43,068 nt of DNA from Myxococcota bacterium (lineage in GTDB: Bacteria; Myxococcota_C; UBA6777), in contig JAKLKB010000134.1 of assembly GCA_023150835.1 (NCBI GenBank), forward strand, positions 1 to 43,068, in the 5' to 3' direction. The translations under genes were made by a program, and so were the position numbers. A model generated the notes under the pieces. The model had not been told where the DNA came from, did no database searches, and saw only the letters and a list, made by a program, of their open reading frames with translations. How positions within the stretch are numbered: position 1 is the first letter of the stretch; every line of letters begins with the position of its first letter. Below, one piece after another: positions 12,207-43,068 of this stretch.

Positions 12207-12250
12207 TAGAGTAAGACTTATGCGAAATTCGCAGAGTGTACGATCGTAAA

Positions 12251-12297
12251 GAGGTAGGGGTCCCCTGTGGCTGCCCAAGCACAGGGCGTCTACGCAC
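12251..12297 (-). repeat. Solitary copy of the REP-like hairpin R3
   Basis: On the minus strand this reads GTAGACGCCC, a spacer, GGGCAGCCACAGGGG and CCCCTAC. The same core forms the 67-bp array at the window end and a solitary copy at 36374. CCCTGTG and CACAGGG form a 7-bp stem here. In the downstream flank on the minus strand, CTCTTTACG also follows the 36374 copy. Confidence 0.85.
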
Positions 12298-12334
12298 TCT
12301 CCTACAATCACACATCATTCGGATATCGTATGAC

Positions 12335-24513: not shown

Positions 24514-26709
24514 TCAGCGAACGCAAAGCAGAGGAGCTTGGTATCCAGAGGAGCTGCAAGTTCCTGCCCCGGGGCAACAATTACTGCCGCAAGTGGGTAA
24601 ACAGGCGGTTCCTCTGGGCCAGCAATAGGAGGATGTATGGGTGCCTCCGCACGAGGAAGTTGCAGAGCTTCCACCTGTGTACATACAAACGCTGGTGCCG
24701 CTTTGGTATCGGGTGATATTGGCAGCTTGCGCCCATTGGCCGATCAACATCAAGGTGGCGACGGTAAATCCAGCCGGACAATCCGAGGCCAACGGGGAGG
24801 ATGTATAGCAACCGACCACACGGAATTCACGGGCTCCTGTGCAGGCGCTGAACCAGCCTGTACACGATGTACTCGCAACGATCGTAGTGATCGGGTAGTT
24901 GTAGCCGCCACACGAGACGCTTGCTGTCACGCATACGCCGTTTTGGCAGGTTTGGGTGCTTCCACAGACTCGACCACATCCGCCGCAGTGGTTGTTGTCG
25001 GTTTGTACGTTGACACAGGTGTTGTTGCAGTTGGTTTGACCGCTGCCGCAGACGATCCGACAAGCTCCTGTGATGCAGCTTTGTCCGCTTGGACAGGCGT
25101 TGTTGCAGGCTCCGCAGTTCTTGGGATCGGTTTGGTAGTTAATGCAGGCATTGTTGCACACCGACGCGCCTGTGGGGCAACTGCAGATCCCTGTAGCGCA
25201 AGAGCCGCCTGTTGGACAGGCGGTACTACAGCGGCCACAATGCCCCATGTTCGTTTGCAGATCCACACACTGCCCGCTGCAAGCCGTCTGTTTCGTCGGG
25301 CAGGCCAGAGTGCATTGCCCGTTTCCGCAAACTTCACCCGCTGCACAGGCTTTTGTACAGGAGCCACAGTATTTGTTGTCGCTGTTGAGGTCGACGCACT
25401 GTCCGTTGCAATTGGAGAGTCCTCTTGGGCACGAGCAAACGCCGCTGGTACAGGACTTTCCGCCCACGCAGATCGACCCGCAGCTTCCGCAGTTTCGGAG
25501 ATCCGTTTTCAAGTCGACGCAACTCCCGCTACAGTCGCTTTGTCCGCTTGGGCAAACCAGTGTGCATTGGCCGTTGAGACATTGCTCGGCGGTTTTGCAG
25601 GGTGTATTGCAGCCCCCGCAATGATCGACGTTTCCTTTGGTATCTACGCAAACGCCGTTGCATTCGGTTTGGTTGCTTGTGCATCCGCAGACCCCTGCGA
25701 CGCAGATCTTGCCGCTGGTACAAACCGTTCCGCAAGTGCCGCAATGGGCCGAGTCATTTTGTAGATTGACGCACGTTCCGTTGCATTCGCTTTGGCCCGA
25801 AGGACAGTTGAGTCCGCACTTTCCACCGACGCATAACTCGCCGTTGGCGCACACGGTTGCGCAAGCACCGCAATGGCTTCGATCGCTTTGCAAGTCGACG
25901 CAAGCGCCGTTGCAGTCGCTTTGCCCTACGATACAAGCACACGTTCCCAAACCACAGGTCTTTCCGCCAGAACAAGCTGCGTTGCAAGCCCCGCAATGGC
26001 TCGGATCGTTTTGTGTATCCACGCATCTGGCCGAACACTCGGTCTGTCCAGACGGGCAGCTTACCGAACACTTTCCTGCTGCACAGATCTCTCCTGCTTT
26101 GCAAGCAGTTCCGCAAGCGCCGCAGTGCGCGCTGGTGCTTTGCAGATCAAAACAGCCACCCGCACAAGCGCTTTGTCCTGTTGGGCAACTGACGACGCAT
26201 TTTCCTGCGTTGCACAGTTCGCCTGTTTTGCAAGCATTCCCGCAAGCGCCGCAGTGACGGTGGTCGGTCTGAAAATCCACGCAATTTCCTGCGCAGGCGC
26301 TTTGGGACTTCGGGCAGGAGATCTCGCATTTTCCGCTCTTACAGCGCTGGCCTTGCTCGCAGATCGTCCCACAAACGCCGCAATGATTGTCGTCCGTTTG
26401 AAGATCGCTGCATTTTCCGCTGCAATCGGTCTGTCCCGATGGGCAGGCACAAGAGCCGTCGATACAGTTTTTTCCCGTAGCACAGGCGTTTCCGCACTTT
26501 CCACAATGCTCGGTGTCTTTTTTGAGGTGGACACAGTTTCCATCGCAAAAAGTCTGGGTGCTACCACAGATCGAAACACACGAACCGGCTTTGCAGATCG
26601 TTCCTGCTGCGCACGTCACAGAAGCGCATGGATCGGGGGTTCCACAACCTCCCATCCACGCAAGCCACAACCACGCCACGCTCAACCAAAAGAGGCTTCG
26701 GTATGCCAT
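24514..26709 (-). CDS. Lipoprotein with 13 myxobacterial-type cysteine-rich repeats
   Basis: The 731-residue protein starts MAYRSLFWLSVAWLWLAW and has a lipobox-like MGGC (Cys22). About 13 repeats of some 43 residues follow, each with the pattern C-x3-Q-x2-C-x3-C-V-D-x-Q-x-D-x2-H-C-G-x-C and ending C-x2-G-x2-C-x2-G-x-C; HCG becomes NCG or YCG in some. The last 130 residues form a separate Cys/Ser-rich domain (SCGGYNYPI to the end). Spaced Cys suggest many disulfides in an exported, rigid surface protein. ATG 26709 follows AAGGAG by about 9 bases; the frame stays open upstream to 26763. Repeats of this kind are frequent in Myxococcota proteins of unknown function. Confidence 0.9.
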   Translation of the reverse strand: MAYRSLFWLSVAWLWLAWMGGCGTPDPCASVTCAAGTICKAGSCVSICGSTQTFCDGNCVHLKKDTEHCGKCGNACATGKNCIDGSCACPSGQTDCSGKCSDLQTDDNHCGVCGTICEQGQRCKSGKCEISCPKSQSACAGNCVDFQTDHRHCGACGNACKTGELCNAGKCVVSCPTGQSACAGGCFDLQSTSAHCGACGTACKAGEICAAGKCSVSCPSGQTECSARCVDTQNDPSHCGACNAACSGGKTCGLGTCACIVGQSDCNGACVDLQSDRSHCGACATVCANGELCVGGKCGLNCPSGQSECNGTCVNLQNDSAHCGTCGTVCTSGKICVAGVCGCTSNQTECNGVCVDTKGNVDHCGGCNTPCKTAEQCLNGQCTLVCPSGQSDCSGSCVDLKTDLRNCGSCGSICVGGKSCTSGVCSCPRGLSNCNGQCVDLNSDNKYCGSCTKACAAGEVCGNGQCTLACPTKQTACSGQCVDLQTNMGHCGRCSTACPTGGSCATGICSCPTGASVCNNACINYQTDPKNCGACNNACPSGQSCITGACRIVCGSGQTNCNNTCVNVQTDNNHCGGCGRVCGSTQTCQNGVCVTASVSCGGYNYPITTIVASTSCTGWFSACTGAREFRVVGCYTSSPLASDCPAGFTVATLMLIGQWAQAANITRYQSGTSVCMYTGGSSATSSCGGTHTSSYCWPRGTACLPTCGSNCCPGAGTCSSSGYQAPLLCVR

Positions 26710-26765
26710 GAAATCATCTCCTTTTTTTGGGATATCGGTGTTGTTTGTTGGAAAAAGATACATGG

Positions 26766-36338: not shown

Positions 36339-36344
36339 ATTATA
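36339..36344 (-). promoter_or_regulatory. Possible -10 element of asd
   Basis: A perfect TATAAT on the minus strand lies 36 bases before the asd ATG. No convincing -35 sits 16-18 bases upstream, so this is a weak call. Confidence 0.35.
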
Positions 36345-36373
36345 CGATGTCCGAGTGATGTGCGTGCAGAGAA

Positions 36374-36430
36374 TAGTACGTAGACGCCCGATTATTGGGC
36401 AGCCACAGGGGGATGCCCCTATCTCTTTAC
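36374..36430 (+). repeat. Solitary copy of the REP-like hairpin R3
   Basis: Reads TAGTACGTAGACGCCC, a spacer, GGGCAGCCACAGGGGG, ATGCCCCTAT and CTCTTTACG. The first 16 bases match the unit of the terminal array; the last 9 match the flank of the 12251 copy. Confidence 0.88.
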
Positions 36431-36455
36431 GCTCACACAACGGGCGGATTTCGAA

Positions 36456-41353: not shown

Positions 41354-42697
41354 TCAGCAAGAACAATCACAGAAGGAAACGGTAATCGAACAGGCAGGTT
41401 TGCCCGTTATAGAGCGGATGATCGAGCGTTTGGAATAAAAGCTGGAGAGCAACACTTCAAACTGACCATCGCTTTCCAAATCGAACAACCCTTCTATCTT
41501 TTGATCAGCCTCCAAGCCAAGCAATGGCTGTAGCTGCTTGAGTTGTCCTGAGGCGCTCTTTTCTGCCACGCCGTAGAGATCCATCCGAACATCTTCCGCA
41601 CCACAAAAGACGTTCCCCTCTTTGGTTTGCAAACGCACTTGAAACAAGAACAACGTACGCCCAAGTCCCGCAAAAGAACGAAAAGAGAAATGACGTCGCA
41701 ATGTTTCTTTTTTCTTTTCGGCGTCTTGCGTCGCTTTTGCCAGCGCTTTGTGGTAGCCATCGTCCTTCAAAAAGAGTTCTTGTAGCTGTGCGAGTTGTTG
41801 TGGTTGTGGTGTTGTGGGCTGTTCCAGATACATCGCGGGGGTCTTGTGTTCCACAGGCAATGCAAAATCAAAGCGTAGACCGCGAGGGAGTGTTTGTGGA
41901 GCGCATGACAATTGTGCAAACAACACAGGCTCTCCACAACCCGGTGCTTTGGGCTTGCGGCCTTGAGAATGGGTTTGCATCCAACCAAAATGAGGCTGCC
42001 CTCTTGTGAGAAAAACGAAGCGTTTGATCGCACAAGTCGCAACCGAATTGTTTTGCTTCAGACTAAAAATGTTGTACTTTTTTCCTATCTCATATCCACC
42101 CACCCGCCGACTTGCAGTCGGAGCGATCCACGTTGTAAGCGAACCTTTCCATTGTTTGGGGCGAACAGAGATCGGCTGCACACGTTGAGCCAGCGCATCC
42201 GCAAGCGGCAGATGCAAAAAAAGCGTCCCTTTGTGTTCCTCGACCCAACGCATCGCTCCACATTGAAACGAGGTTGGCTGCGCTTCTCCGCGACAATGAG
42301 CCTCCACATGACGCTGTATCCCGACATATTTACCAGCATTTTTCAAATAGTGATCGATCTTGAGTCTCTGAAGTTTCTTTGCAAATTGTACCGCTTTCTT
42401 CTTTGAAGAGAATGCCTGTGCCACCACAACTTCGTAGCAAGGCATCAGTCCCTTAAACTCCGAAGAAGAAAGCCTCGCGACCCGCGCACCCAACGATGGA
42501 TTCTGCTGCAAAAGCAACAAACCCGCTGGCACCACGCCTTGTTGTTTTGAGGAACTCAAGATAACCAACCACTGGTCGGCATAGGATGACGCTGACCTTC
42601 TCTGATGCTGTTGCGCGACCACATCCCATGATTCCAAAGCACACAAGCACAACATCAGCAGCGACACGCGCAACAATACACGCCGAAAAAAACGCAT
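41354..42697 (-). CDS. Exported protein with SPOR-like N-terminal domain
   Basis: The 447-residue protein begins MRFFRRVLLRVSLLMLCLCA, a signal peptide ending near VVAQ. Residues 40-125 (WLVILSSSK through KKAVQFAKKLQRLKIDHYLK) look like a SPOR-type fold, a peptidoglycan-binding domain also seen in myxobacterial exported proteins. The middle has Cys-containing beta-rich stretches, and LFDLESDGQFEVLLSS near the C-terminus resembles one FG-GAP/calcium-like blade. It ends with a Cys-rich tail (FCDCSC). ATG 42697 follows AGGAGG by 5 bases. A periplasmic or envelope role is inferred; catalysis is not evident. The 67-bp repeat array starts 14 bases upstream of the ATG. Confidence 0.78.
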   Translation of the reverse strand: MRFFRRVLLRVSLLMLCLCALESWDVVAQQHQRRSASSYADQWLVILSSSKQQGVVPAGLLLLQQNPSLGARVARLSSSEFKGLMPCYEVVVAQAFSSKKKAVQFAKKLQRLKIDHYLKNAGKYVGIQRHVEAHCRGEAQPTSFQCGAMRWVEEHKGTLFLHLPLADALAQRVQPISVRPKQWKGSLTTWIAPTASRRVGGYEIGKKYNIFSLKQNNSVATCAIKRFVFLTRGQPHFGWMQTHSQGRKPKAPGCGEPVLFAQLSCAPQTLPRGLRFDFALPVEHKTPAMYLEQPTTPQPQQLAQLQELFLKDDGYHKALAKATQDAEKKKETLRRHFSFRSFAGLGRTLFLFQVRLQTKEGNVFCGAEDVRMDLYGVAEKSASGQLKQLQPLLGLEADQKIEGLFDLESDGQFEVLLSSFYSKRSIIRSITGKPACSITVSFCDCSC

Positions 42698-42710
42698 TGA
42701 TCCTCCTCGC

Positions 42711-43068
42711 GATGAATCTAAGGATAGTACGTAGATGCCCTATTCTTGGGCAGCCACGCGGGGTTGCCCCTACATTCGACGAATCTAAAGACAGTACGTA
42801 GATGCCCTATGATTGGGCAGCCACGGGGGGCTGCCCCTACATTTGATGAATCTAAAGATAGTACGTAGATGCCCTATGATTGGGCAGAAACGGGGGGCTG
42901 CCCCTACATTTGATGAACCTAAGGACAGTACGTAGATGCCCTATAATCGGGCAGCCACGGGGGGCTGCCCCTACATTTGATGAACCTAAGGACAGTACGT
43001 AGATGCCCTATAATCGGGCAGCCACGGGGGGCTGCCCCTACATTTGATGAACCTAAGGACAGTACGTA
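42711..43068 (+). repeat. 67-bp tandem array of the R3 REP-like hairpin, open at the window end
   Basis: Units begin at 42711, 42778, 42845, 42912, 42979 and 43046: an exact 67-base period, five full units and a partial sixth. Each contains AGTACGTAGATGCCC, a spacer, GGGCAGCC-loop-GGCTGCCC (8-bp stem, imperfect in some units) and CCCCTACATT. The fourth and fifth units are almost identical; the first is the most diverged. The same core is found alone at 12251 and 36374. Confidence 0.97.

What the first reader, a model, noticed from the sequence alone, without database searches (positions are those of the whole stretch)
42711..43068. 67-bp tandem array amplifying a REP-like hairpin found singly elsewhere
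Exact 67-base periodicity over at least five units, each with an 8-bp stem and the TACGTA palindrome. The same core occurs as single copies at 12251 and 36374 without tandem repetition. Neighbouring inner units are nearly identical, pointing to recent expansion or homogenisation. The array begins 14 bases before an ATG, so copy number could affect that gene's transcription.
Basis: seen in the sequence. Interest (0 to 1): 0.58.

Follow-up and report, generated by a model that had tools for sequence, protein, structure and literature searches.

The report
Tandemly amplified REP-containing mobile element fragment
A 67-base unit repeated at least five times just before a gene turns out to be a piece of a very abundant, roughly 115-base hairpin-bearing mobile repeat, copied in tandem together with nine bases of the gene's own leader; it is a good example of a known kind of bacterial repeat cluster rather than a new system.

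Summary
The array is real: 67-bp period, 5.3 copies, 93% matches, running off the contig end. It is not a stand-alone hairpin. Its repeated core is the inner half of a ~115-bp dispersed palindromic element with terminal inverted repeats (TACGAWATCCG...CGGATATCGTA) and a 3-bp TNA target duplication (middle base equal in 54 of 94 isolated copies, 23.8 expected). Density: 123 hits in 650,532 sampled bases, about 1,400 per genome if representative. The 'single copies' at 12221-12331 and 36342-36455 are full-length members. The inner half is a GTAG-tagged REP like those beside a RAYT-like gene of this genome. In the same-genus genome the orthologous gene has no array, but does have the leader sequence AGATTCATC; each 67-bp unit here ends in that host sequence or a one-base variant. 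So element fragment plus host leader were duplicated together, in this lineage, after insertion. At least 24 other tandem arrays of the family, periods 43-125 bp, lie in 1.10 Mb of this genome. Tandem REPIN clusters including flanking sequence, and REP dimers inside longer palindromes, are in print. Effect on the gene: untested.

The parts
42711..43068 (-). 67-bp tandem array, 5.3 copies, cut by the contig end
   Evidence: TRF; unit comparison
42711..42777 (-). unit 1, gene-proximal and most divergent (8 of 67 differences from every other unit)
42711..42719 (-). host leader segment AGATTCATC, present once in the same-genus genome without an array and repeated at the end of every unit (one copy reads AGATTCGTC, the outer copies AGGTTCATC)
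   Evidence: comparison of window with L078
42778..42844 (-). unit 2
42845..42911 (-). unit 3
42912..42978 (-). unit 4, identical to unit 5
42979..43045 (-). unit 5, followed by 23 bases of a sixth unit up to 43068
42702..42708 (-). GAGGAGG, probable ribosome-binding site of the adjacent gene, unchanged in the same-genus genome
   Evidence: sequence
41354..42697 (-). 447-aa ORF downstream of the array; conserved gene of unknown family (dN 0.039, dS 0.245 against the same-genus ORF)
12221..12331 (+). full-length dispersed element (single copy)
   Evidence: nhmmer, alignment
36342..36455 (-). full-length dispersed element (single copy), flanked by TAA on both sides
   Evidence: nhmmer, flanks, alignment

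Best explanation
The array is a local tandem amplification of part of a non-autonomous mobile element together with host leader DNA. Step 1 (shown for the family; inferred for this site): a ~115-bp MITE-like element with inverted ends inserted at a TNA site upstream of the 447-aa gene; its centre is a GTAG-tagged REP hairpin. Step 2 (inferred): its right end and a little host DNA were lost, leaving the element's inner part next to the host sequence AGATTCATC. Step 3 (shown by anatomy): the segment made of 58 element bases plus those 9 host bases was duplicated head to tail. Step 4 (inferred from unit divergence): further slippage or unequal recombination among 67-bp units added copies, most recently at the end away from the gene. 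The most likely trigger is strand slippage at the stable hairpin during replication; no transposase is needed for the tandem step. Any effect on the gene is an untested by-product.
For: Family and ends: 11-seed alignment and nhmmer, 123 hits in 650,532 bases of G000 against 0 in a block-shuffled control. TNA duplication: 54 of 94 isolated copies have the same middle base, 23.8 expected, maximum 40 in 10,000 shuffles; five neighbouring positions sit at 21-26 of 94. Empty site: the element at L035 6457-6569 (G000) is absent from the aligned G001 site in L154, where a single TAA stands. Host co-duplication: AGATTCATC next to GAGGAGG is single-copy in L078 and, with one-base variants, ends each unit here. 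Lineage-specific: no array in L078. General tendency: 25 arrays overlapping elements, this one included, periods 43-125, in 1,104,223 bases of G000, several with host DNA in the unit (some regions were chosen because they hold arrays); in the 650,532 bases not chosen that way, 10 of 48 arrays of period 40 or more overlap an element, 2.0 expected, maximum 8 in 1,000 placements.
Against: The distal array end is not in the assembly: the expected neighbour gene (mpl-like) is cut at its codon 76 at the end of another contig, so neither the left end of the ancestral element nor its target duplication can be seen. Units cover only model positions about 31-91, so a core-only REP insertion is not excluded here. 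No covariation supports the hairpin: 93.6% of hairpin cells pair, but the shuffles pair as well over the whole structure, so slippage at a hairpin is inferred. No autonomous partner with the same ends was found. Only one related genome was available for the site.
Confidence: 0.8

Rival explanations
1. A core-only REP or REPIN was put upstream of the gene by the genome's RAYT, and repeated RAYT action built the array.
For: A RAYT-like gene exists (NCBIfam REP_Tyr_transpos 58 bits, below its cut-off of 80; Pfam Y1_Tnp 28.9 bits, over the cut-off) with GTAGGGGCAGCC hairpin arrays next to it and related hairpins in its reading frame. The array units hold only the inner, REP-bearing half.
Against: Repeated insertion would not copy nine host leader bases into each unit; of 123 family hits only 18 lack both ends, and the 33 isolated partial copies in G000 are nearly all one-ended truncations rather than cores cut at GTAG.
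Confidence: 0.12
2. The array is a selected promoter or leader regulator whose copy number tunes expression of the 447-aa gene.
For: It abuts the ribosome-binding site and every unit carries a hairpin.
Against: The gene is conserved in the same-genus genome with no array; no sigma-70-like promoter or terminator found in the array; the family forms such arrays elsewhere.
Confidence: 0.06
3. The array is an assembly artefact at a contig end.
For: It is cut by the contig end and its last two full units are identical.
Against: Apart from that pair, units differ from each other at 4-8 of 67 positions, and the innermost junction is contiguous with a conserved gene; only the copy number is in doubt.
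Confidence: 0.02

Closest known systems
Ordered tandem REPIN clusters of Pseudomonas fluorescens SBW25 (PMC3116915; passages seen)
   Same: Tandem repeats of nearly identical REP doublets including the flanking sequences; 16 clusters in that genome, some next to RAYT genes.
   Different: Here the REP lies inside a longer inverted-repeat element with a 3-bp target duplication, the unit holds only part of it, and the co-duplicated flank is identified against an array-free same-genus site.
GTAG-tagged REPs and their clusters (PMC3733652; abstract, passages, sections 7 and 16 seen)
   Same: GTAG next to a G+C-rich hairpin; [quoted passage not shown] GTAG-15 dimers of A. variabilis sit inside long palindromes; RAYT association.
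   Different: Other phylum and sequence. A TNA duplication is not mentioned in what I read ('target site' occurs 0 times in its main text).
TnpA-REP subclass 2.4 (PMC6006769; passages, sections 13 and 23 seen)
   Different: Subclass not assigned here by a tree; resemblance only.
BrickBuilt, a MITE holding a minisatellite, Porphyromonas gingivalis (PMC4596501; passages seen)
   Same: Tandem repeats associated with a MITE.
   Different: There the 23-nt repeat is part of the element itself; here the tandem unit is an element fragment plus host DNA and differs at each site.
ERIC and other bacterial MITEs (PMC10969869; passages seen)
   Same: Short palindromic intergenic element; ERIC reaches 711 copies in Photorhabdus luminescens according to that review.
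   Different: Different ends and target; the estimate here is about twice as many copies.

Membership tests
MITE (non-autonomous inverted-repeat transposable element) | Terminal inverted repeats | tested here: met
   TACGAWATCCG / CGGATATCGTA; 95.8% of outer-helix cells pair in 50 copies; consensus folds with z -3.65
MITE (non-autonomous inverted-repeat transposable element) | Target site duplication and empty site in a relative | tested here: met
   3-bp TNA: 54 of 94 against 23.8 expected; one clear empty site, where one of the two TAA copies carries a substitution
MITE (non-autonomous inverted-repeat transposable element) | Autonomous partner with the same ends | tested here: inconclusive
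   Not found: 9 loci from the PF01609, PF13586 and PF13358 searches carry no such pair flanking the transposase; PF13340 and PF13359 gave no match. The partner may be lost or of a family not searched, so the filing is MITE-like, partner unknown
GTAG-tagged REP | GTAG directly 5' of a hairpin | tested here: met
   GTAG-GGGCAGCC...GGCTGCCC in the consensus; 93.6% of hairpin cells paired
GTAG-tagged REP | High copy number, mostly intergenic | tested here: met
   123 hits in 650,532 bases; 18 of 123 lie wholly inside an ORF of 250 aa or more, 93.9 expected at random
GTAG-tagged REP | RAYT in the genome with matching REPs | tested here: met
   L046:8267-9031(-) with GTAGGGGCAGCC hairpins beside it; the RAYT model score is below NCBI's cut-off
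REPIN | Two REPs in inverted orientation forming one hairpin that moves as a unit | tested here: inconclusive
   A second tag, CTAC after GGGCGT, is present in the consensus, but its own stem is short and movement of the core alone is not shown
Tandem REP/REPIN cluster with flanking DNA | Unit contains element plus host flank, head to tail | tested here: met
   AGATTCATC or a one-base variant in each unit, against the array-free genome

The most novel reading that the evidence does not exclude
The family is a composite with two possible routes of spread: a RAYT-recognisable REP captured inside a MITE with TNA target duplications, whose hairpin also drives frequent local amplification that copies host leader DNA into arrays and so rewrites gene leaders genome-wide.
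Probability: 0.25. Interest if true: 0.55.

Novelty: new member of a known kind. Interest (0 to 1): 0.3.

Why it matters
It gives a well-anchored case (array-free relative, identified host segment, polarised units) of how REP clusters with flanking DNA arise, and a myxobacterial genome with perhaps 1,400 copies of one small element in which such tandem events are common enough to study statistically. The dispersed family is more interesting than this one array.

Tried and rejected
Autonomous partner: searched the own genome with PF01797, PF13340, PF01609, PF13359, PF13586 and PF13358; no transposase flanked by the element's ends (the two PF01797 loci were scanned with looser matching, also without such a pair). 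The PF01609/PF13586 remnant in L057 (three in-frame stops) lies between 21-base ends GAGGGTGTTTGCGAAAAAGTG with TTA on both sides: a TNA duplication, but unrelated ends. That IS5-type transposases make TNA duplications is recalled, not from a call.

A 1,258-bp end pair in L036 looked like an autonomous copy; it encloses a gene that I read as a hydrolase by eye (no family search), not a recognisable transposase.

Distal array end: sought through the neighbouring gene; it lies at the end of contig C124, cut at codon 76, so the junction is missing.

Rfam: only two tRNAs in the window. Covariation: no signal. RNA folding of one unit: z -0.97, so RNA structure is not exceptional; as DNA, minus strand, z -2.04. 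Promoters and terminators: none. Literature searches were made; one search returned nothing useful. In-frame REPs in the RAYT-like genes looked new until PMC6006769 turned out to describe them. CRISPR was not considered further, because the units are contiguous and without spacers.

Full report
Observation. The array at 42711-43068 is real: period 67, 5.3 copies, 93% matches, no indels. The window is the complete contig C75 of a 7.56-Mb genome in 239 contigs, so the array is cut by the contig end and its copy number is a minimum. Unit 5 equals unit 4; units 2 to 5 differ from unit 1 at 8 of 67 positions each, and from each other at 0 to 7 (the script lists units from the contig end).

What the repeated core is. 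Copies from other contigs, read with their flanks and aligned, show that similarity runs well beyond the core: the family is about 115 bp long, begins ATACGAAATCCG and ends CGGATATCGTAT. A profile of it finds 228 hits in 1,104,223 bases of G000, 119 of them full-length. In the 36 stretches not chosen for hits (650,532 bases, mostly the first 20 kb of consecutively numbered contigs) there are 123, 56 of them full-length, and none in a block-shuffled control. At 0.189 per kb this extrapolates to about 1,430 in the genome; contig ends may be enriched in repeats, so this could be too high. G001, the only other genome of the genus searched, has 27 in 642,341 bases. In a search of 41 genomes, 7 have matches, but only G000 and G001 have full-length ones; the other five match only the inner core. 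The two 'single copies' in the window are full-length members.

It moved. Flanks of 94 isolated full-length copies show T-N-A on each side; the middle base is the same on both sides in 54 of 94, 23.8 expected, at most 40 in 10,000 shuffles, with five neighbouring positions at 21 to 26. One G000 copy (L035 6457-6569) is missing from the aligned G001 site, where TAA stands once; in G000 one of the two copies reads TAG. Two other G000 copies (L048 1699-1819 and 8328-8438) are shared with G001. Against a random mean of 93.9, only 18 of 123 hits lie inside mechanical ORFs of 250 aa or more.

Its centre is a REP. The inner part reads GTAG-GGGCAGCCCCCTGTGGCTGCCC. The genome has a RAYT-like gene (L046:8267-9031 minus) with hairpins of the same sequence in an array beside it. 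Outside the ~115-bp elements the 36 stretches hold 6 GTAGGGG hairpins by a simple rule, 5 of them with a different stem (GCGGTTCGCGAACCGC).

How this array formed. In L078 (MAG Myxococcota bacterium KLAP109; its contig length equals that of G001:C435, so I take it to be G001) the 447-aa gene is conserved: 38 of 447 residues differ; dN 0.039, dS 0.245. Its leader reads ...CACAAGATTCATCACGAGGAGGATCCATG, with no array. Here it reads ...CTATCCTTAGATTCATCGCGAGGAGGATCAATG, and each unit ends in that AGATTCATC or a one-base variant. A unit is thus 58 element bases plus 9 host bases. The host bases can only be in every unit if element and leader were duplicated together after the element had come to lie there. 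Units next to the gene keep AGATTC; outer ones have AGGTTC, and the two outermost full ones are identical, so the latest copying was at the far end.

It is not a lone event. TRF rows of period 30 or more that overlap the family number 25 in the G000 sample (this one included; some regions were picked because they hold arrays) and 2 in G001; unit lengths are 43, 51, 52, 56-58, 66-67, 69, 74, 76, 84, 110, 115-116, 122 and 125 in G000. In the stretches not chosen for hits, 10 of 48 merged arrays of period 40 or more overlap an element, 2.0 expected, at most 8 in 1,000 random placements; in G001, 2 of 31, 0.28 expected, at most 3. Many different breakpoints and host flanks argue for many independent local duplications. 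That the hairpin starts them by slippage is inference; covariation does not support the hairpin, though its columns are conserved.

What is not shown. The far end of the array is missing: the neighbouring gene in L078, which I read by eye as an mpl-type ligase, is at the end of contig C124, beginning at its codon 76, so the ancestral insertion cannot be read. No partner transposase with matching ends was found. No effect on the gene was tested.

Place among known things. Bertels and Rainey (PMC3116915, passages; authors' names recalled) report 16 tandem REPIN clusters that include flanking sequence; Di Nocera et al. (PMC3733652, abstract, passages, two sections) describe GTAG REP clusters repeated with flanking DNA, and REP dimers inside long palindromes. 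PMC6006769 (passages, two sections) describes RAYTs with in-frame REPs. The array is therefore a new member of a known kind; the TNA-duplicating element around the REP is the less usual part, and I found no account of it in the papers looked at, from searches.

Noticed in passing
L046:8267-9031 (minus), and L083, L185-L189, L195: RAYT-like ORFs carry GTAGGGG tags or their complement in frame after the MPNHxH motif: 8 of the 11 loci in which the motif was found (13 loci scanned). PMC6006769 describes this for its subclass 2.4.
   Followed up: yes
L065:4436-4672, L036:16244-16484, L075:13271-13461, L167:14415-14650: A second small element of 191-241 bp, with ends like TACGCGCCTTGTTAAGGTGG and CACCTAACGCCTA, is inserted in either orientation in the REP hairpin of the ~115-bp element, with about 12-14 bases of the hairpin duplicated.
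   Followed up: partly
L073:6021-6176, L064:15942-16355, L179:15885-16129, L181:15075-15364, L183:9835-10149: Sequences beginning CACTTGGACCAACTC recur at breaks inside the hairpin and take part in arrays of period 122; nature unknown.
   Followed up: no
L057:1463-1877: Remnant of an IS5-type transposase gene (PF13586) between inverted ends GAGGGTGTTTGCGAAAAAGTG, with TTA on both sides, directly next to a copy of the element.
   Followed up: partly
window 24514-26763: 749-aa protein with 13 Pfam Stig1 stretches, a family named after plant stigma proteins.
   Followed up: no
window 225-23810, 16 TRF rows: Many other tandem repeats in the window besides the array (16 further TRF rows), with periods of 9-51 bp.
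   Followed up: no
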